Shown: in pieces, positions 8,557 to 34,052 of the stretch
How positions within the stretch are numbered: position 1 is the first letter of the stretch
Layout: every line of letters begins with the position of its first letter
Assembly (NCBI GenBank): GCA_017478085.1
Contig: JAFVEE010000025.1
Coordinates: 1-37,419 of the forward strand
DNA length: 37,419 nt
Source of the DNA: Prevotella sp.
GTDB lineage: Bacteria; Bacteroidota; Bacteroidia; Bacteroidales; Bacteroidaceae
Direction: 5' to 3'
The notes under the pieces: generated by a model
Databases searched by the model: none
Seen by the model: only the letters and a program-made list of their open reading frames with translations
Told to the model about the DNA's origin: nothing
Position numbers and translations under genes: made by a program

Positions 8557-8594
8557 CATCCAAGTTGCCACAAGACGGCAACCGCACAACACGA

Positions 8595-9977
8595 ATGGGC
8601 AAGCAGACAACGGGCCAGAACTCAACTACTGAAACGGCAGAAGCCAGACAATGGCTTCCGGCGCAAGCGCCTGTGCTCTGCGAAAAGCCAGAACGTCGCT
8701 GCGGCAGTCCGGACGCTAAGGCCCCCGTTCACTGGCTGATAGAGGCCGACAACCTGCCCGCACTGATGGCGCTGGCACAGACACATGGAGGAAAGGTCGA
8801 CGTCATCTACATAGACCCGCCCTACAATACCGGCCATAAGGACCTGGCCTACAACGACACCTTCGCCCGTGCCACCGGCACCGACGGGCACGCTGCCTGG
8901 CTGTCGTTCATGCGCGAGCGACTCATCATCGCCCGGCAACTGCTCTCTGAACGGGGCGTCATCTTCATCAGCATAGACCAGCACGAGCTGGCCAGGCTGA
9001 ACCTGCTGTGCAACGACCTCTTCGGCGAGCAGAACTGCCTGGGCATCATCACCCTCATCAACAATATGAAAGGGCGTTCCGACGACGCCCACTTCGCCAC
9101 CTGCAACGAGTTTATGCTGGTCTATGCCCTGCATCCCGACCGGGTGGAGATGACCCCGACGGCCATCGACGAGGAGGAGATGGAGAACGACTACAAGCTG
9201 GCCGACGAGCTGAGCAGCTACAAGACCGTGGGACTGCGCAAGACGGGCAAGAACTGGCGGCGCGAAGACCGTAAGGGCATGTACTACCCGGTGCTGCAGC
9301 GGGGTGGCGAGTTCTTCAGCATCAGCGACGAGGAATACAACCGCATCTACGACAAACCGTCCGACACGATCGACGATGACTACGTAGCCACCCTGTGTCA
9401 GCAGTACCGCCAACAGGGGTTCACGGTGCACCTGCCCATCGACGGCAACGGCGAGAAAGGGCGGTGGCGCTGGGGCTTCTACAACAGCTTCCGCAAGTAC
9501 TACAAGACCGAGCTGTGCGTCAACACCGAGGGCACGCTCTGCACCAAGATGCGCAACAGGCTGGAAGACGGCTCCATACGCGGCAAGCTGGCCAAGACCG
9601 TGTGGTACAAGGCAGAATACGACACGGGCGTGGCAGGCAAGGCCCTGACCCGCATGTTCGGCCACAAGGTGTTCGGGCACCCCAAGGCGGTGACGCATAT
9701 CAAGGACGTGCTTTCCCTGTTCGGCCGCGACATCACCGTGCTCGACTTCTTTGCCGGATCGGGCACCACGATGCACGCCACGATGCTGCTGAACGCCGAG
9801 GACGGCGGCACCCGCCGCTGCATACTGGTGACCAACAACGAGAACGGCATCTGCCACAACGTGACCTATCCCCGCTGCCGCATGGTGATTGAGGGCTACG
9901 ACCTGCCCGGCGGCAAGCACGTAGACGGGCTGACGAACAACGCCCTGCAATATTTCATTACAAAAACTACCGACTAA
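8595..9977 (+). CDS. Orphan beta-class site-specific DNA adenine-N6 methyltransferase (type III Mod-like)
   Basis: 460 aa from ATG 8595 (a TTG ten codons earlier lies too close to the promoter). The catalytic motif IV DPPYNTG (74-80) precedes the AdoMet-binding motif I FAGSGTT (386-392), the order that defines beta-class enzymes such as type III Mod subunits. ISIDQHELARL after motif IV and VTNNENGICHNVTYPR after motif I are also Mod-like. The region between (about 150-340) should hold target recognition. At 460 aa it is shorter than a typical type III Mod (about 600). No restriction (Res) gene is present on either side. The downstream neighbour is a cation/proton antiporter beginning only 2 nt after the stop, so the two are very probably co-translated. 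An epigenetic rather than defensive role is inferred. Confidence 0.87.
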   Translation: MGKQTTGQNSTTETAEARQWLPAQAPVLCEKPERRCGSPDAKAPVHWLIEADNLPALMALAQTHGGKVDVIYIDPPYNTGHKDLAYNDTFARATGTDGHAAWLSFMRERLIIARQLLSERGVIFISIDQHELARLNLLCNDLFGEQNCLGIITLINNMKGRSDDAHFATCNEFMLVYALHPDRVEMTPTAIDEEEMENDYKLADELSSYKTVGLRKTGKNWRREDRKGMYYPVLQRGGEFFSISDEEYNRIYDKPSDTIDDDYVATLCQQYRQQGFTVHLPIDGNGEKGRWRWGFYNSFRKYYKTELCVNTEGTLCTKMRNRLEDGSIRGKLAKTVWYKAEYDTGVAGKALTRMFGHKVFGHPKAVTHIKDVLSLFGRDITVLDFFAGSGTTMHATMLLNAEDGGTRRCILVTNNENGICHNVTYPRCRMVIEGYDLPGGKHVDGLTNNALQYFITKTTD

Positions 9978-9979
9978 CT

Positions 9980-12106
9980 ATGACTTTCTTCTCATCATAC
10001 CTGCCCATCGACGACCCTGCACTCATCTTCTTCGTGGTGCTGCTCATCGTGCTCTTTGCACCTATCATCATGAGCAAGCTGCGCATTCCCCACATCATAG
10101 GCATGGTGCTGGCGGGCGTGCTCATCGGGCCCCACGCCCTGCATGTGCTGGAGCGCGACAGCTCGTTCGAGATCTTCGGCCACGTGGGCCTGTTCTACAT
10201 TATGTTCCTGGCCGGTCTTGAGATGGACATGGAGAGCGTGAAGAAGAACTCGCGGCAATTCGTGATCTTCGGACTGCTCACCTGCTTCGTGCCCTTGGTG
10301 CTCACCTACCTCATGTCAGTATCCATACTGGGCTACAGCGGCAGGGCATCGTTCCTGTTAGGATGCATTATGGCGTCAAACACGCTCATCGCCTACCCCA
10401 TCGTGGGCCGCTACGGCCTGCAGCGCAACTCCAGCGTCATGCTCAGCGTGGGCTCGTCGATGATCTCGCTCTTCCTGGCCCTGGTCATGATAGCGGGCCT
10501 GTCGGGCTCATTCAGCGAAGACAGCGGCGTGCTGTTCTGGCTGCTCTTCGCGCTGAAGTTCGCCCTGTTCTGTGCAGGCAGCATCTTCATCATACCCCGC
10601 CTCACGCGCTACTTCCTGCGCCGCTACAGCGATGCGGTCATGCAGTACATCTTCGTCATGGCCATCATGTTCCTCAGTGCCGCACTGAGCGAGCTCATCG
10701 GGCTGGAGGGTATCTTCGGAGCCTTCTTCTCGGGCCTGATTATGAACAGGTACATACCCCACGTGTCGCCCCTGATGAACCGCATCGAGTTCATCGGCAA
10801 CGCGCTCTTCATTCCCTACTTCCTCATTGGTGTGGGCATGCTCATCAACCTGCGCACCATCGTCGACGAGCCCGACATGATCTGGGTGGTGCTGCTCATC
10901 GCCTTCTTCGGCACCTTCGGCAAGGCCGTGGCCGCCTATCTGTCGAGCCTCCTCTTCCGCCTGCCCAAGGCCGAGGGGCACATGATGTTCGGCCTCACCT
11001 CGGCCCACGCTGCCGGTGCCATCGCCATGGTGATGGTGGGCATGAAGCTGGAGGTGGCCCCCGGCGTGATGCTGGTGAACGACCAGATGCTGAACGGCGT
11101 GATCATGATGATTCTCGTGACGTGTATCATCTCGACCCTCATGACGCAGAAGGCCGCCAAAGAGATCATCTTCCGCGAGAAGACACATCTGGAAATCAGG
11201 AAGCCCGATGCCGACGACGAGAAGATCCTGGTGTGCGTGAAATATCCCGACATAGCCCCGCAGCTGCTCAACCTGGCCGTGCTGATGCGCAACCAGCGGC
11301 TGAACCGCGGCGTGGTGGCGCTCAACGTGGTCTACGACGATCAGGACAGCAATAAGGGGCGCGAGCAGGGCCTGCGCCTTCTGGAGCAGCTACAGCAACA
11401 GGCCAGCGCTTCGGAGGTGATGCTACAGACGCAGGTGCGCCTGGCCACCAATATAGCCAACGGCATCAAGCACGCCTTCCGCGAGTTTGCCTGTTCCGAG
11501 ATTGTGATGGGCATGCACGTGCATACCGAGGTGACGCAGAAGTTCTGGGGCGAGTTCATTCAGAGCCTCTACAACGGTCTGAACCGCCAGATTGTACTCA
11601 CCCGCTTCGAGCAGCCGCTCGCCACACTGCGCCGCATTCAGGTGGCCGTGCCGTCGAGGGCCGAGTTCGAACCTGGCTTCCACCGCTGGTTAGAGCGCCT
11701 GTGCCGCTTTGCGGGCGAGCTGGACTGCCGCATACAGTTCCACGGCCGCCAGGAGTCGCTCGTGCTCATAAACGAGTACATCCAGAACATGCACCCCAGC
11801 GTGCGGGGCGAATACACCCCGATGGCCCACTGGAACGAGCTGCCCCAGCTGGCGCAGGGCATAGGCAAGGACCATCTGTTTGTGGTGGTCACGGCCCGTA
11901 AGGGCACCATCAGCTACAAGAATGCCCTCGACCGTCTGCCCGACGAGCTCACGAAATACTTCTCGGGCACCAACCTGATGATCATCTTCCCCGACCAGTA
12001 TGGCAACCAGAAGGAAGATGCCATGAGCTTCACCGAGGCCCAGCACCAGGAGGAGAACAGCATCTACGATACCCTCCTACGCTGGTTCCACAAAACAAAA
12101 GAATAG
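9980..12106 (+). CDS. CPA2-family cation/proton antiporter with C-terminal USP-like domain
   Basis: 708 aa. The first ~390 residues contain about 12 hydrophobic segments with the family pattern LRIPHIIGMVLAGVLIGPHAL near the N-terminus, LFYIMFLAGLEMD (the conserved membrane acidic region), and a late segment with HAAGAIAMVMVG. The remaining ~300 residues are cytoplasmic and begin with KILVCVKYPDIAPQLLNLAVLM, resembling a universal-stress-protein fold. Such proteins exchange Na+ or K+ for protons at the inner membrane. It sits 2 nt behind the orphan methyltransferase, an unusual coupling. Confidence 0.9.
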   Translation: MTFFSSYLPIDDPALIFFVVLLIVLFAPIIMSKLRIPHIIGMVLAGVLIGPHALHVLERDSSFEIFGHVGLFYIMFLAGLEMDMESVKKNSRQFVIFGLLTCFVPLVLTYLMSVSILGYSGRASFLLGCIMASNTLIAYPIVGRYGLQRNSSVMLSVGSSMISLFLALVMIAGLSGSFSEDSGVLFWLLFALKFALFCAGSIFIIPRLTRYFLRRYSDAVMQYIFVMAIMFLSAALSELIGLEGIFGAFFSGLIMNRYIPHVSPLMNRIEFIGNALFIPYFLIGVGMLINLRTIVDEPDMIWVVLLIAFFGTFGKAVAAYLSSLLFRLPKAEGHMMFGLTSAHAAGAIAMVMVGMKLEVAPGVMLVNDQMLNGVIMMILVTCIISTLMTQKAAKEIIFREKTHLEIRKPDADDEKILVCVKYPDIAPQLLNLAVLMRNQRLNRGVVALNVVYDDQDSNKGREQGLRLLEQLQQQASASEVMLQTQVRLATNIANGIKHAFREFACSEIVMGMHVHTEVTQKFWGEFIQSLYNGLNRQIVLTRFEQPLATLRRIQVAVPSRAEFEPGFHRWLERLCRFAGELDCRIQFHGRQESLVLINEYIQNMHPSVRGEYTPMAHWNELPQLAQGIGKDHLFVVVTARKGTISYKNALDRLPDELTKYFSGTNLMIIFPDQYGNQKEDAMSFTEAQHQEENSIYDTLLRWFHKTKE

Positions 12107-12110
12107 TAAG

Positions 12111-12190
12111 TAATAGTCCCCAAAAGTCCCAATTAGTCCCAACCAGTCCCAAAAAGTCCCAACCAGTCCCCCAAAAACTCCCAAAAACTC
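12111..12190 (+). repeat. 10-bp tandem repeat filling the antiporter-lolD gap
   Basis: Eight units with an exact 10-bp period: six end in agtccc (ending at 12120, 12130, 12140, 12150, 12160 and 12170) with variable first four bases, followed by two copies of ccaaaaactc. The array begins 5 nt after the antiporter stop and ends 4 nt before the lolD ATG. It fills the whole gap, and no promoter box is visible in it. Confidence 0.9.
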
Positions 12191-12194
12191 CCCC

Positions 12195-12863
12195 ATGATC
12201 CAAACCACCCAAATCACCAAGAGCTTCGGCTCGCTCCAAGTGCTCAAGGGCATCGACCTGAGCATCAGCAAGGGCGAAGTGGTTAGCATCGTCGGCCCCA
12301 GCGGTGCCGGCAAGACCACCCTGCTCCAAATCATTGGCACCCTCGACCGCCCCGACACAGGCACCGTCTGCGTCGACGGCATCGACACCACCACCCTGTC
12401 GCAGAAACAGCTCAGCGACTTCCGCAACAAGCACCTGGCCTTCGTGTTCCAGTTCCACCAGCTGCTGCCCGAGTTCACGGCCATCGAGAACATCATGATT
12501 CCCGCCTACATAGCAGGCCGCCCCAACAGGGAGGCCAAGGCCCGTGCCGAAGAGCTGCTGCAGTTCATGGGACTGAGCGACCGCGCCCAGCACAAGCCCG
12601 CCGAGCTGAGTGGCGGCGAGAAGCAGCGCGTGGCCGTGGCCCGTGCACTGGTAAACAACCCCGCCGTCATCCTGGCCGACGAGCCCAGCGGCTCGCTCGA
12701 CTCGAAGAACAAGCAGGAGCTGCACCAGCTGTTCTTCGACCTGCGCGACAAGTTCGGACAGACCTTCGTCATCGTGACCCACGACGAGCAGCTGGCCACC
12801 CTCACCGACCGCACCATCCACATGCGCGACGGTCTTCTGGAAGAAAGGGGGGAGTCATGCTGA
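12195..12863 (+). CDS. lolD: ABC transporter ATP-binding protein, LolD-like
   Basis: 222 aa. Walker A GPSGAGKT (34-41), Q-loop in [14 protein letters not shown], signature [15 protein letters not shown], Walker [13 protein letters not shown] and switch histidine in VTHDEQL. The [10 protein letters not shown] sequence and overall length match LolD, the ATPase of the LolCDE complex that extracts lipoproteins from the inner membrane. The MacB and FtsE families are close, so LolD is the best but not the only reading. No permease gene is adjacent; in Bacteroidales lolCE is often unlinked. The start lies right after the 10-bp repeat array. The 3' end overlaps the next gene by 7 nt. Confidence 0.88.
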
Positions 12864-13735: not shown

Positions 13736-13845
13736 AACGGAGCCCTCGTTGCAATCTAACGGAGGCTCCGTTCCATCACAACGGAGCCTCCATTCCATCA
13801 CAACGAAGCCTCCGTTGCTTCCTAATGCGGGCTCCATTATATTTA
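13736..13845. repeat. Array of five 22-bp units with palindromic core (copy 1)
   Basis: Five contiguous 22-bp units start at 13736, 13758, 13780, 13802 and 13824. Each is a 15-bp near-palindrome around AACGGAGSCTCCGTT plus a 7-bp variable spacer (for example gcaatct, ccatcac, ccatcac). Because the core is self-complementary, adjacent cores can pair as a 15-bp stem with a 7-nt loop. It lies between the cvfB-like gene and the promoter of the AT-rich cassette. The fifth unit is the most diverged. The flanking bases 13697-13735 hold only a C8 run. Confidence 0.92.
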
Positions 13846-13916
13846 TACATTTTCGGGCATCTTTCTCAAAGAAAAAACATATTTCTGGTACTCTGCCACT
13901 TTTTAATATGAACATT

Positions 13917-13948
13917 TTTGGTGGTTCGCTGATTTCTTCGTACCTTTG
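13917..13948 (+). promoter_or_regulatory. Promoter of the HipA-like kinase cassette
   Basis: TTTG (13917-13920), a 20-bp spacer and TACCTTTG (13941-13948) match the Bacteroidetes consensus. The ATG at 13963 leaves a leader of only about 8 nt. The purine stretch aaaaagg directly before it could serve as a weak ribosome site. Confidence 0.75.
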
Positions 13949-13962
13949 CCCCCGCAAAAAGG

Positions 13963-14772
13963 ATGCTTATGAATATTGCGACGATATACAGTGCAAAGAG
14001 AATTGAACGACAATTCCACACGGGCGAGGAGCCTGTGTTGGTAATGTGTTCTGACCTTAACACCTATGTTTGCAAGTATATGCGTTCTTCTGCAACAGCC
14101 TATAAACTGGCTTGTGAGCTCATTGGCGCAAGGATGGCTATGGCTTGGAGATTAGCGACTCCCGATATTGCTTTGGTAAAAATTCAACCTTCGCATTGGG
14201 AGGGATTACATCAGTCGCATAGCCTTTCTTCTCCTTCTATTGGTAGCAAATGGCTGGATGGCGTTGTAGACATTACTCCCTCAACATACGCAGAGGTTCC
14301 CGCGAACAAGGAAATTCTCTACCAGCTGATGCGCATTGCCCTGTATGATTTCTGGGTAGCCAATGAAGACCGTAATGCGAACAATGCGAACCTGATGTAT
14401 GATGTGATTCGTGGCCAATTGGTCTCGATAGATTACGGTTGCATTTTCAATACAGCAACTTTCGATTATCCACTTTCTCAACTGACGTCAACCGATACTA
14501 TATTATGGTCGGACTTCTTTCTGCATCTTGCTAAGAGCCAAGAGAATAACAGTATTCGTGCGTTGGCTGATCGACTGAAATATGAATATGAAAAGGTGCT
14601 GAATCAATGCCGTTTGTTGATAGGTCAGGTATTGGCAGACATCCCAAGCGAATGGAATGTGCCTCAAGATAGGGTCAAGGAAAAACTGAATCAGTTGTTT
14701 GATGAGCATTGGACAACTGGGGTGTGGAATAACTTTTCAGAATGTCTTAACGAAAATATCAGTCATGAATAA
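13963..14772 (+). CDS. HipA-like minimal protein kinase (HipA_2 type)
   Basis: 269 aa, far shorter than classical HipA (about 440). N-lobe: VLVMCSDLNTYVCKYMR, where K38 should be the ATP-binding lysine, then a helix with E52 (ACELIGARMAMAW). C-lobe: NEDRNANNANLM with catalytic D136 and N141/N143, followed by SIDYG whose D157 is the metal-binding Asp. This layout matches HipA-like kinase domains. ATG 13969 is an alternative start. The DNA is visibly AT-richer than its neighbours, with A/T-ending codons, pointing to transfer. The gene overlaps the next by 8 nt. No HipB-like antitoxin or helix-turn-helix protein is present. By analogy it may phosphorylate a translation-related protein, but the target is unknown. 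Confidence 0.78.
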   Translation: MLMNIATIYSAKRIERQFHTGEEPVLVMCSDLNTYVCKYMRSSATAYKLACELIGARMAMAWRLATPDIALVKIQPSHWEGLHQSHSLSSPSIGSKWLDGVVDITPSTYAEVPANKEILYQLMRIALYDFWVANEDRNANNANLMYDVIRGQLVSIDYGCIFNTATFDYPLSQLTSTDTILWSDFFLHLAKSQENNSIRALADRLKYEYEKVLNQCRLLIGQVLADIPSEWNVPQDRVKEKLNQLFDEHWTTGVWNNFSECLNENISHE

Positions 14773-15160
14773 TCTGAAATATAGTATCATTTATGCTGTC
14801 ATACGGCCTGAGATTGCCGAACGCATCAGTGTGGGGCTGATATTTGTTGATGGCGATAGGGTGGATGTGCGTTACTCTCAACAGAAGTTGGATGCCTTGC
14901 GAGGATTATTCCCTAAAAAGGAATATGAGTTCGTTTCGCGTGTGGTCAGTGCTATGCCTACAAACGGCAGTGTCAGTTCTGTCGAGGCCATCAATTACCT
15001 TACCCGCTATTCCAATAACCTTATTGCCGTTTCTCCTCTGCAAAGCATTGATATTGCCCCAACAGAACAGAGCAAAGACCGTTTATATGCCAACTATGTA
15101 TTCAACACAAATAAAACTATAGTAGACGAACAAGATGAAGACAGAACAACAACAGGATAA
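14765..15160 (+). CDS. DUF3037-like partner of the HipA-like kinase
   Basis: 131 aa, starting at ATG 14765 inside the end of the kinase gene (8-nt overlap). The frame extends upstream, but this start gives the motif MNNLKYSIIYAVIRPEIAER followed by SVGLIFVDGDRVDVRY. It resembles the start of DUF3037 proteins (Tyr-rich strand, then a Gly/Val-hydrophobic strand). I recall DUF3037 genes lying next to HipA-like kinases in other bacteria. The tail (TIVDEQDEDRTTTG) is hydrophilic and overlaps the LeuA-like gene by 26 nt. Codon use matches the kinase gene. Function is unknown: candidates are an adaptor, substrate or neutralising partner of the kinase. Confidence 0.68.
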   Translation: MNNLKYSIIYAVIRPEIAERISVGLIFVDGDRVDVRYSQQKLDALRGLFPKKEYEFVSRVVSAMPTNGSVSSVEAINYLTRYSNNLIAVSPLQSIDIAPTEQSKDRLYANYVFNTNKTIVDEQDEDRTTTG

Positions 15161-16697
15161 GAGGCAACAGCGGCTGTCACCTTTTATTGAGATTATGGAC
15201 TCTACACTCCGCGACGGCGAACAGACCAGCGGGGTGAGCTTCCTGCCACACGAGAAGCTGATGATTGCACGCATGCTGCTGCGCGACCTGAACGTAGACC
15301 GCATAGAGGTGGCTTCGGCTCGCGTGAGCGAGGGCGAGAAAGAGGCGGTGAAGATGATATGCCGTTATGCCCGACAGATAGACTGCCTGGAAAGGGTGGA
15401 GGTGCTGGGCTTCGTTGACGGCCACACGTCGGTAGACTGGATCAAGGATGCCGGGGCCGTGACGCTGAACCTGCTGGCCAAGGGCTCGCTGAAGCACTGT
15501 CAGGAACAACTGAAGAAGACTCCCGAACAACATATTGCCGACATCAAGGCCGTGGTGAGCTACGCTACCGGTCAGAGCATCGGCGTGAACCTGTACTTGG
15601 AAGACTGGTCGAGCGGCATGAAGGACTCGTCTGAATATGTCTACCAGCTGATGGACGCGCTCGTCGACACGCCCATTCGCCGCTATATGTTGCCCGACAC
15701 GCTGGGCATTATGAACCCGCTGCAGGTCATCGAGTACTTCCGTAAGATGAACAAGCGCTACCCCGACGTACACTTCGACTTCCACGCCCACAACGACTAC
15801 GACCTGGCCGTGAGCAACTCGCTGGCCGCTGCCCTCAGCGGCGTGCGGGGCCTGCACGTCACGGTGAACGGCCTGGGCGAGCGCTGCGGCAATGCTCCGC
15901 TGAGCAGCGTGCAAGTGATTCTGAAGGACCAGTTCAACGCGCGTACCAATATTGTAGAGAACAAGCTCAACGACGTCAGCCGCCTGGTGGAGAGCTACAG
16001 CGGCATAGCCATCGCGCCCAACCAGCCCATCATCGGCGACAACGTGTTTACCCAGGTGGCGGGCGTGCATGCCGACGGCGACCAGAAAGGCGGGCTCTAC
16101 CACAATGCGCTGATGCCCGAACGCTTTGGCCGTCGCCGTGAGTATGCGATGGGAAAGACCAGCGGTCGCGCCAACATTGCCCGCAATCTGCAGGAGCTGG
16201 GACTGGAGCTGACGCCCGAGCAGACACAGCGCGTCACGAAGCGCATCACCGAGCTGGGCGACCGCAAGGAGGTGGTGACACAGGACGACCTGCCCTTCAT
16301 CGTGAGCGATGTGCTGAAGCACGACGTGGATGAGGACAAAGTGAAGCTCGTAAGCTACCAAGTATCACTGGCTTACGGTCTGAAGCCTCTTGCAAATGTG
16401 AAAGTTGAGATCAATGGCTACCAGTACGAGGGCCACTCGTCGGGCGACGGTCAGTATGACGCCTTCGTGAAGGCCCTGCGCAAGATCTATCGCGAGTATC
16501 TGGACCGCACCTTCCCCTTGCTCGAGAACTATGCCGTGACCATCCCCCCCGGCGGTCGCACCGATGCCCTGGTGCAGACGGTCATCACCTGGCGCAAGGA
16601 CGACGGCCGCCTGCTGCGCACCCGTGGCCTGGATGCCGACCAGACCGAGGCCGCCATCAAGGCCACGATAAAAATGCTGAACATTATTGAAAAATAA
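15135..16697 (+). CDS. 2-isopropylmalate synthase paralog with regulatory domain
   Basis: 520 aa. The catalytic TIM barrel has MDSTLRDGEQTSGVSF near residues 21-36, where LeuA has DTTLRDGEQ, the metal-binding HAHND motif, and VNGLGERCGNAPLSS. A linker follows, then a LeuA-type C-terminal allosteric domain ending in DGRLLRTRGLDADQTEAAIKATIKMLN. Enzymes of this family condense acetyl-CoA with a 2-oxoacid. In Bacteroides a similar paralog sits just before leuB, after leuA, leuC and leuD; here those three are absent and the HipA-like cassette is directly upstream. The start overlaps the cassette by 26 nt, and the first ~17 residues (MKTEQQQDKRQQ...) look unusual for the family. The substrate (2-oxoisovalerate or pyruvate/citramalate type) is undecided. 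Confidence 0.87.
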   Translation: MKTEQQQDKRQQRLSPFIEIMDSTLRDGEQTSGVSFLPHEKLMIARMLLRDLNVDRIEVASARVSEGEKEAVKMICRYARQIDCLERVEVLGFVDGHTSVDWIKDAGAVTLNLLAKGSLKHCQEQLKKTPEQHIADIKAVVSYATGQSIGVNLYLEDWSSGMKDSSEYVYQLMDALVDTPIRRYMLPDTLGIMNPLQVIEYFRKMNKRYPDVHFDFHAHNDYDLAVSNSLAAALSGVRGLHVTVNGLGERCGNAPLSSVQVILKDQFNARTNIVENKLNDVSRLVESYSGIAIAPNQPIIGDNVFTQVAGVHADGDQKGGLYHNALMPERFGRRREYAMGKTSGRANIARNLQELGLELTPEQTQRVTKRITELGDRKEVVTQDDLPFIVSDVLKHDVDEDKVKLVSYQVSLAYGLKPLANVKVEINGYQYEGHSSGDGQYDAFVKALRKIYREYLDRTFPLLENYAVTIPPGGRTDALVQTVITWRKDDGRLLRTRGLDADQTEAAIKATIKMLNIIEK

Positions 16698-16709
16698 AAA
16701 CTAAACAAC

Positions 16710-17771
16710 ATGAAACTGAAGATTGCCGTTCTCCCCGGCGACGGAATAGGTCCGGAGATTATGAAGCAGGGCGTGGCCGTGCTCGATGCCATTGCCCAGA
16801 AGTTCAACCACGAGTTTGCGTATGAGGAAGCCATCGTAGGTGCCCATGCCATCGACGAGGTGGGCGACCCCTACCCCGAGGCTACCCACGAGGTGTGCAT
16901 GCGTGCCGATGCCGTGCTGTTTGCCGCCGTGGGCTCGCTCAAGTACGACAACGACCCCACCTCGAAGGTTCGCCCCGAGCAGGGTCTGCTGGCCATGCGC
17001 AAGAAGCTGGGCCTGTTTGCCAACGTGCGCCCCGTGGCCACGTTCGACTGCCTGCTGCACAAGTCGCCCCTGAAGGACGAGCTGCTGCGGGGTGCCGACT
17101 TCGTGGTCATACGCGAGCTGACGGGTGGCATGTACTTCGGCGAGAAGTATCAGGACAACGACAAGGCCTACGACACCGACGTCTACACCCGTCCTGAGAT
17201 TGAGCGCATTCTGAAGGTGGCCTTCGAGATGGCGCAGAAACGCCGCAAGCACCTCACCGTGGTCGACAAGGCCAACGTGCTGGCCAGCAGCCGGTTGTGG
17301 CGACAGATTGCCAAGGAGATGGAGCCGCAGTATCCCGATGTTGAGACCGACTATATGTTCATTGACAACGCTTCGATGCGCGTGCTCACCGAGCCCCGCT
17401 TCTTCGACGTGATTGTGACCGAGAACACCTTCGGCGACATTCTGACCGACGAGACCTCGTGCATCACCGGCTCCATGGGCCTGCAGCCTTCGTCGTCGCT
17501 GGGCCTGCACACGCCGCTCTTCGAGCCTGTGCACGGCTCGTGGCCCCAGGCCGCAGGGCAGAACCTGGCCAACCCCCTGGCCCAGATTCTTTCTGCCGCC
17601 ATGCTGCTGGAGCACTTCGGGCTCAGCGCCGAGGGTGCCCTCATCCGTGAGGCCGTCGATGCCTCGCTGGCAGCCAATGTGCGCACGCCGGAGATTCAGG
17701 TCGAGGGCGGCGAGAAGTATGGCACGAAGGAGGTGGGCCAGTGGATTGTGGACTATATTCAGCGTGCATGA
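16710..17771 (+). CDS. leuB: 3-isopropylmalate dehydrogenase
   Basis: 353 aa. Oxidatively decarboxylates 3-isopropylmalate to 2-oxoisocaproate in leucine synthesis. Visible signatures are [11 protein letters not shown] at the N-terminus, [33 protein letters not shown] with the catalytic Tyr, VDKANVL with the catalytic Lys, [10 protein letters not shown] with the metal-binding Asp residues, and [18 protein letters not shown]. The gene follows the LeuA paralog by 12 nt and overlaps the next gene's ATG (ATGA). LeuA proper and LeuCD must be encoded elsewhere if leucine synthesis is complete. Confidence 0.96.
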
Positions 17772-33942: not shown

Positions 33943-34052
33943 AACGAAGGCTCCGTTACAATTCAACGGAGCCTTCGCTGTTTTGTAACGGAGCCTTCAT
34001 TGCGTTGTAACGGAGCCTTCGCTGAGTCACAACGGAGCCTCCGTTATGATAA
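33943..34052. repeat. Array of five 22-bp units with palindromic core (copy 2)
   Basis: Units start at 33943, 33965, 33987, 34009 and 34031, each 22 bp, core near AACGGAGCCTYCGTT plus 7-bp spacer (acaattc, gttttgt, gcgttgt, gagtcac, atgataa). Number, period and total length (110 bp) equal those of the array at 13736, but the spacers differ. It lies between convergent genes, 36 bp after the acidic-tail gene and 2 bp before the transporter stop, so a bidirectional terminator is plausible. Confidence 0.92.

What the first reader, a model, noticed from the sequence alone, without database searches (positions are those of the whole stretch)
13846..15160. Compact HipA-like kinase + DUF3037-like cassette, AT-rich, with its own promoter: candidate undescribed toxin-antitoxin or defence module
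Two overlapping genes (8 nt) follow one consensus promoter. The first is a 269-aa kinase that keeps catalytic K38, D136, N141 and D157 but lacks about 170 residues of classical HipA. The second is a 131-aa DUF3037-like protein. There is no HipB. The DNA is visibly AT-richer than both sides. Known HipBA and HipBST systems do not have this layout. That the pair acts as a toxin with a non-DNA-binding partner is inference.
Basis: partly seen in the sequence, partly recalled or inferred. Interest (0 to 1): 0.72.

Follow-up and report, generated by a model that had tools for sequence, protein, structure and literature searches.

The report
Short-partner HipA-kinase/DUF3037 toxin-antitoxin cassette
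The window carries a small, foreign-looking pair of genes, a HipA-like kinase and a DUF3037 protein, that belongs with a recently described phage-defence toxin-antitoxin family, but in a trimmed form of gut Bacteroidales whose partner protein lacks the second domain.

Summary
The pair is real: a HipA_2 kinase (13969-14772) and a DUF3037-like protein (14765-15160), 8-nt overlap, behind a Bacteroidetes promoter, in the most AT-rich stretch of its length in the window. Kinase plus DUF3037 is already known as PADLOC PDC-M66 and DS-6/HipAD. In tested relatives the kinase is needed for defence and deleting DUF3037 is toxic (PMC12548924, PMC13092281). New is a variant: in 66 of 66 gut-Bacteroidales relatives whose contig continues, the partner is one domain (median ORF 117 aa) instead of about 280 aa, and the kinases form one clade among long-partner kinases. 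Homology among 13 close copies ends near the coding ends. Six of 61 copies have 31-136-bp direct repeats close on both sides, against 8 of 5641 control blocks. In seven loci the kinase is lost or broken while the partner stays open; the reverse was not seen, though gene length alone makes this weak. No structure could be predicted. Neutralisation, target and phage defence of this variant are inferred.

The parts
13917..13948 (+). Bacteroidetes-type promoter, TTTG-N20-TACCTTTG
   Evidence: pattern search, 5 in window vs 0.07 expected; 48 of 66 relatives have TAnnTTTG within 90 bp of the kinase ATG, 4.0 expected by mononucleotide shuffle. That this is the Bacteroidetes consensus is recalled
13969..14772 (+). 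HipA_2-family Ser/Thr kinase, 267 aa (ORF open from 13963, 269 aa); probable toxin/effector
   Evidence: Pfam PF20613 78.2 bits, cut-off 27; PADLOC PDC-M66A 42 bits; K36, D134, N139, D155 in 48 of 48; toxin role inferred from relatives (PMC12548924)
14765..15160 (+). DUF3037-only partner, 131 aa; probable antitoxin/regulator. The last 16 or so residues lie beyond the family profile and run into the leuA start
   Evidence: Pfam PF11236 16.9 bits, below cut-off 22.6; profile match to the N-terminal part of long DUF3037 partners 99.6%; profile covers 14765-15109
13736..13838 (.). array of 22-bp-period palindromic repeats between the CvfB-like gene and the promoter; not shown to belong to the module
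   Evidence: the repeat finder D2/I1; 13 motif matches in window vs 0.47 expected, a second array at 33943-34045
15135..16697 (+). downstream host gene leuA (2-isopropylmalate synthase), whose start lies inside the partner ORF; context only
   Evidence: Pfam HMGL-like + LeuA_dimer; the ORF listing

Best explanation
A horizontally acquired two-gene toxin-antitoxin unit. The HipA_2 kinase is a growth-arresting effector. The overlapping DUF3037 gene makes a domain that binds the kinase and holds it inactive, and phage infection releases it (abortive infection). It is a single-domain-partner variant of the HipAD / PDC-M66 / DS-6 type. The C-terminal half of the partner, taken in relatives as DNA-binding, is absent, so the operon is probably not regulated by its own partner and relies on a plain promoter. 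Shown here: homology, catalytic residues, constant pairing in the clade, purifying selection, foreign composition and unrelated flanks, absence of the second domain. Shown by others for relatives: toxicity without DUF3037, kinase-dependent defence. Inferred: neutralisation by this short partner, the trigger, the kinase's target, and defence in this host.
For: Kinase family and active site; A1 against an E. coli prophage HipA-family kinase 97.4%. Partner homology to long HipAD-type partners. Partner directly downstream in 66 of 66 short-clade loci whose contig continues, 67 loci in all, and in all 13 strong kinase genomes among 399 family genomes. NG86 dN/dS 0.095-0.208 for the kinase (5 of 18 pairs with finite dS, none with the window) and 0.021-0.101 for the partner (9 of 18, four with the window). 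Short-partner kinase clade 100*. Seven loci keep an open partner with a deleted or broken kinase, none the reverse. Published tests on relatives.
Against: No experiment on this clade was found. DUF3037 matches Pfam only below the cut-off, and hhalign of the short partners with the single E. coli prophage partner is weak (2.8%). The kinase-loss polarity is weak once gene length is allowed for (0.70^7, about 0.08, my arithmetic), and three of the seven are frameshifts/stops in draft genomes. No defence family recurs among the neighbours. The partner is MORE conserved than the kinase, which I recall as unusual for an antitoxin. Structure prediction never ran.
Confidence: 0.7

Rival explanations
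1. A stand-alone selfish or addiction toxin-antitoxin unit, kept by post-segregational killing or drift, with no anti-phage role in these hosts.
For: No defence family recurs in more than 2 of 93 neighbours; patchy, 12 of 398 same-genus genomes, the window's own included; repeated kinase loss with the partner kept; no relative in three viral-contig scans.
Against: Relatives defend against phage in E. coli (PMC12548924, PMC13092281); the DefensePredictor abstract says that systems outside defence islands escape co-localisation searches.
Confidence: 0.2
2. Not a toxin-antitoxin pair: a regulatory kinase with an activating or substrate-presenting DUF3037 subunit, in host signalling.
For: Partner more conserved than kinase; constant pairing; copies close before host genes such as lepA and leuA.
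Against: Deletion of DUF3037 in the Retron-Sda1 operon was toxic; kinase-less loci keep the partner; patchy distribution and foreign GC.
Confidence: 0.08
3. The short partner is a decayed, non-functional remnant of a long HipAD partner.
For: Its C-terminal half is absent; the window copy has an unshared tail that runs into leuA.
Against: Short in 66 of 66 clade loci; dN/dS 0.02-0.10; 19 invariant columns in 21 sequences.
Confidence: 0.02

Closest known systems
DS-6 / HipAD (E. coli; PMC13092281, passages read; Brenes and Laub 2025 seen only as a reference line)
   Same: HipA-related kinase plus a DUF3037 protein, two genes, no HipB-like partner; kinase activity needed for defence in DS-6
   Different: DS-6B is reported with DUF3037 plus DUF1829 and a predicted DNA contact; the window partner is one DUF3037 domain of 131 aa. 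An E. coli prophage pair fetched here has a 275-aa partner, in which Pfam found DUF3037 but no DUF1829 at E 0.05; that it is DS-6 itself is not shown
PADLOC PDC-M66
   Same: kinase matches PDC-M66A
   Different: PDC-M66B model is 281 positions; no match for five short partners. It also missed four long Bacteroidota partners (L021, L023, L135, L008), so divergence as well as length causes the miss
HipA/DUF3037 unit of Retron-Sda1 (PMC12548924, section 10 read)
   Same: same two families; stand-alone defence; DUF3037 deletion toxic
   Different: sits in a retron operon; its DUF3037 C-terminus is said to resemble a retron DNA-binding protein (the figure legend says PRTase effector), a part absent here
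127-aa DUF3037 class of other Bacteroidales (14 loci among L009-L026)
   Same: HipA_2 kinase plus single-domain DUF3037, overlapping genes
   Different: separate kinase clade (99*); strong Pfam DUF3037 match in the two scanned (144 and 152 bits); function not examined
HipBA and HipBST
   Same: HipA-type kinase; HipT kinases are also short (PMC8262856, passages)
   Different: no HipB gene seen; no sequence match of DUF3037 profile A5 to K-12 HipA

Membership tests
HipAD / DS-6 / PDC-M66 | HipA_2 kinase with intact catalytic residues | tested here: met
HipAD / DS-6 / PDC-M66 | DUF3037 gene directly downstream, coupled | tested here: met
   8-nt overlap; sub-threshold Pfam match but profile homology 99.6% to long partners and 92.9% to DUF3037 set A5
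HipAD / DS-6 / PDC-M66 | second, C-terminal partner domain (PDC-M66B 281 positions; DUF1829 reported in DS-6B) | tested here: not met
   131 aa, covers only the first domain of long partners; no PDC-M66B match. Hence filed as a variant, not a plain member
HipAD / DS-6 / PDC-M66 | partner neutralises kinase; kinase-dependent phage defence | not testable with these tools
   known for relatives only
HipBA | adjacent HipB helix-turn-helix antitoxin | tested here: not met
   upstream gene CvfB-like, downstream partner DUF3037-like; two small ORFs over the repeat array not scanned
HipBST | HipS partner resembling HipA N-subdomain 1 | tested here: inconclusive
   no sequence match of A5 to K-12 HipA; HipS itself not compared; fold comparison could not be run

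The most novel reading that the evidence does not exclude
In gut Bacteroidales a HipAD-type defence kinase has become a minimal 1.2-kb, two-gene mobile unit without a recognisable integrase. It enters at the 5' ends or leaders of host genes, duplicating tens to over a hundred base pairs of the target, so that the host gene keeps a start and the cassette gains a promoter. Its partner works as an antitoxin without any DNA-binding domain. The way of movement would be undescribed.
Probability: 0.25. Interest if true: 0.62.

Novelty: new variant of a known kind. Interest (0 to 1): 0.4.

Why it matters
It would be a minimal natural form of a newly described kinase-based defence system: one DUF3037 domain should suffice to hold the kinase. 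That makes the division of labour in long partners (neutralise versus bind DNA or sense phage) directly testable. PADLOC's partner model missed the five short partners tested and Pfam scores the window's partner below its cut-off, so defence inventories of rumen and gut Bacteroidales probably under-count it. The flanking duplications raise the question of how small toxin-antitoxin units move without an integrase.

Tried and rejected
Phage or plasmid carriage: three viral-contig scans found no relative; phage records gave one distant match, plasmids five. HipA-family kinases of 'Gratiaviridae' gut phages (PMC8008677, passages) were not compared. Integron-like array: considered; the ORFs of eight loci (L068, L073, L079, L083, L087, L102, L125, L143) showed me no integrase by eye, no scan was made, not pursued; repeats of L143 and L102 remain unexplained. 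Defence island: of 74 PADLOC families that hit the 93 neighbours at E 1e-10 the 25 listed have at most 2 members each; which neighbours these are is not given; the many PD-T4-6 rows probably mean generic Ser/Thr kinases, as Pfam also lists Pkinase in 2. Simple empty site in the window: rejected, because in 11 of 12 same-genus loci inspected a leuD-like gene directly precedes leuA (the 12th, L149, showed leuC only), while in this genome leuD lies at a contig end without leuA, and in two relatives CvfB faces a gene that I read as asnS (leuC, leuD and asnS named by eye); the window junction is a rearrangement or an assembly fault. DUF3037 as a HipS homologue: no sequence support, fold not tested. 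Solved structures: only weak matches for the kinase (E 0.034 and above, HipT at 0.5) and none meaningful for the partner. Predicted structures: the queue was full at all 20 calls, one for the kinase alignment A3 (48) and 19 for the partner alignment A4 (49, 54, 62, 68, 74, 82, 89, 95, 102, 108, 111, 115, 119, 127, 129, 133, 135, 137, 140).

Rows dropped: from the tree, 14 of 79 named-genome loci (near copies, truncated kinases), L033-L036, and the unnamed genus/family loci L003 and L040-L062; the tree label 'none_seen' of L031 is probably wrong, since a 313-aa ORF overlaps the kinase end just outside my filter. From the neighbour list, 8 loci (near copies, contig end), neighbours outside 100-700 aa, and 4 of 97 listed neighbours (repeat lepA copies) were not scanned. 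From the repeat test, loci with under 200 bp of either flank or a long partner. At the laxer score 35 the repeat test gives 6 of 61 against 17 of 5641.

Full report
What is there. The window is a whole contig (C34) of a 3.13-Mb draft genome, 76.6% complete. Its closest named relatives of the module come from Prevotella and other gut/rumen Bacteroidales genomes, nearly all metagenome-assembled. The kinase ORF runs 13963-14772, with the conserved start at 13969; the partner runs 14765-15160. A Bacteroidetes-type promoter lies at 13917-13948. The stretch 13846-15160 has GC 0.427 against a mean of 0.580, lower than all 670 other blocks tested. Both families are under purifying selection: NG86 dN/dS is 0.095-0.208 for the kinase (5 of 18 pairs with finite dS) and 0.021-0.101 for the partner (9 of 18). 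The other pairs are saturated at synonymous sites, among them all 12 that hold the window kinase, where pN is 0.18-0.22 against pS 0.75-0.84.

Families. The kinase scores 78.2 bits for HipA_2 (cut-off 27) and 42 bits for PADLOC PDC-M66A. K36, D134, N139 and D155 are present in 48 of 48 aligned kinases. The partner scores only 16.9 bits for DUF3037 (cut-off 22.6); 28 of 51 members of the partner alignment match DUF3037 at E 0.05 or better. Profile comparison settles the relation: the short partners align with the first 138 positions of about 280-residue partners at 99.6% (E 5e-25) and with a DUF3037 set at 92.9% (E 4e-7). The long partners align with that set, which holds the E. coli prophage protein, along nearly their whole length. 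Against the single E. coli partner the short profile scores weakly (2.8%); the kinase profile against the E. coli kinase scores 97.4%.

Partner classes. HipA_2 kinases of the order and family come with (a) short partners of the window's kind, (b) partners of 274-309 aa, (c) 127-aa DUF3037 proteins, mostly with a 23-nt overlap. Some distant HipA_2 matches show no DUF3037-like neighbour (L020, L032, and the weak L034-L036). Of 79 named-genome loci, 67 carry window-type kinases. In 66 the partner profile finds the next gene (ORF 113-187 aa, median 117; longer ORFs begin inside the kinase gene), and the 67th (L124) ends at a contig edge. The kinase tree of 92 rows puts the window-type kinases (55 rows labelled short, plus L128, whose partner is also short) on one branch with 100* support, among long-partner Bacteroidota kinases; class (c) is a separate 99* branch (quick search, SH-aLRT only, several long branches). 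Loss of the second domain is the simpler reading, but the tree cannot give direction. L063 (131-aa partner, beside L028 with 285 aa) may be a second short case; not followed.

Known or not. The pair as such is described. PMC12548924 (passages and section 10 read): DUF3037 is strongly associated with HipA-like proteins and PADLOC calls the pair PDC-M66; in the Retron-Sda1 operon deletion of the kinase eliminated defence against Bas51 and deletion of DUF3037 was toxic. PMC13092281 (passages and the first of three parts of the reference list read): DS-6, renamed HipAD, a HipA-related kinase plus a DUF3037/DUF1829 protein, lost defence when a catalytic residue was mutated; AlphaFold3 predicted kinase-partner and, more weakly, partner-DNA contacts. 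The HipA-family survey PMC8262856 (outline and passages read) has no occurrence of DUF3037 in its main text. Searches for DUF3037, HipA_2, HipAD, PDC-M66, HipA with DUF3037, and Prevotella with HipA in the held library listed no paper that I recognised as treating a DUF3037-only variant; subscription papers are mostly not held. In E. coli, 283 of 5426 genomes match at least 80% (341 any part) of a Klebsiella-phage stretch that holds such a pair; the one opened is in a lambda-like prophage and has a 275-aa partner.

What differs. The window partner stops after the first domain. PADLOC's 281-position PDC-M66B model missed all five short partners scanned and hits the E. coli partner, L028 and L009; but it also missed the four long Bacteroidota partners L008, L021, L023 and L135, so the miss is not due to length alone. 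The sequence upstream of the pair is not conserved between 13 close copies, although 48 of 66 relatives have a TAnnTTTG box. Both facts fit an operon not regulated by its own partner; this is inference.

Which gene is the poison. In seven loci the kinase is deleted, truncated or frameshifted while the partner is open: G1051 and G1012 (kinase gene gone, partner now behind a promoter), G032 (internal deletion), G769/L123 (first 100 residues missing), and G973/L127, L118 and L133 (frameshifts or stops). In one (G920) the kinase is gone and the partner has a stop. Among short-clade loci an intact kinase with a broken or missing partner was not seen where the contig continued. This fits kinase = toxin, partner = antitoxin, but allowing for gene length the chance is about 0.08, and frameshifts in drafts can be errors. 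Of 399 family genomes 15 have a kinase match, 13 of them strong (the others are G1018, with a distant kinase and its own 131-aa DUF3037, and a fragment in G708); all 13 are among the 16 with the partner (apparently the same draw of genomes).

How it moves. Similarity between the 13 close copies ends within about 45 bp of the coding ends, with unrelated flanks, except for the pair L070/L077 (up to 2.5 kb of flank compared, 300 bp upstream of L076). In 6 of 61 copies direct repeats of 31-136 bp flank the unit within 300 bp, against 8 of 5641 same-sized control blocks of the same loci, those from 4 loci (at a laxer score 6 against 17). In L083 the upstream repeat is the first bases of lepA, whose intact start follows the cassette; four other lepA-side copies do not show it. 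In G368 39 bp of a glycosyltransferase 5' end are repeated exactly, and in G375 the same place holds a different gene. In 18 of 56 loci a same-strand gene starts within 60 bp after the partner; in 6 of 51 one ends within 60 bp before the kinase. No integrase was recognised by eye in eight loci, nor among the 25 listed of 91 Pfam families of the neighbours. The window copy shows no such repeat; its leuA side is a rearrangement or assembly fault. The mechanism of movement is open.

Verdict. A real, mobile toxin-antitoxin unit of a recently described defence family, in a distinct short-partner form not found in print in these searches. The function of this form is inferred from relatives.

Noticed in passing
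window 13736-13838 and 33943-34045: Two arrays of 22-bp-period palindromic repeats (AACGGAGSCTCC core; 13 matches against 0.47 expected), one just before the cassette, one between two other genes.
   Followed up: partly
window 15135-17771; G000 contig C54:54091-54678: leuA-leuB are separated from leuD: in 11 of 12 same-genus loci inspected a leuD-like gene directly precedes leuA; here leuD is at a contig end beside an unrelated gene. Rearrangement or chimeric assembly.
   Followed up: partly
window 8565-9974: N6/N4 DNA methylase (Pfam 87.5 bits); the neighbouring ORFs were not scanned for a restriction gene.
   Followed up: no
window 12105-12192: 10-bp-period tandem repeat (AGTCCCAANN) just before the ABC-transporter-like gene at 12195.
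   Followed up: no
L228 1108-2226 (G375): A 372-aa ATPase-like gene (named by eye) occupies the place between two glycosyltransferase genes where G368 carries the kinase/DUF3037 cassette: possible exchange site.
   Followed up: partly
L102 3644-3837/6480-6672 and 4657-4818/7742-7903; L143 4707-4776 and further copies: Long repeats, partly palindromic, spaced along the flanks of two relatives; possibly attC-like in L143, not tested.
   Followed up: no
L063 (G1018) 836-1228: A second short (131 aa) DUF3037 partner in a different kinase clade, near L028 with 285 aa.
   Followed up: no
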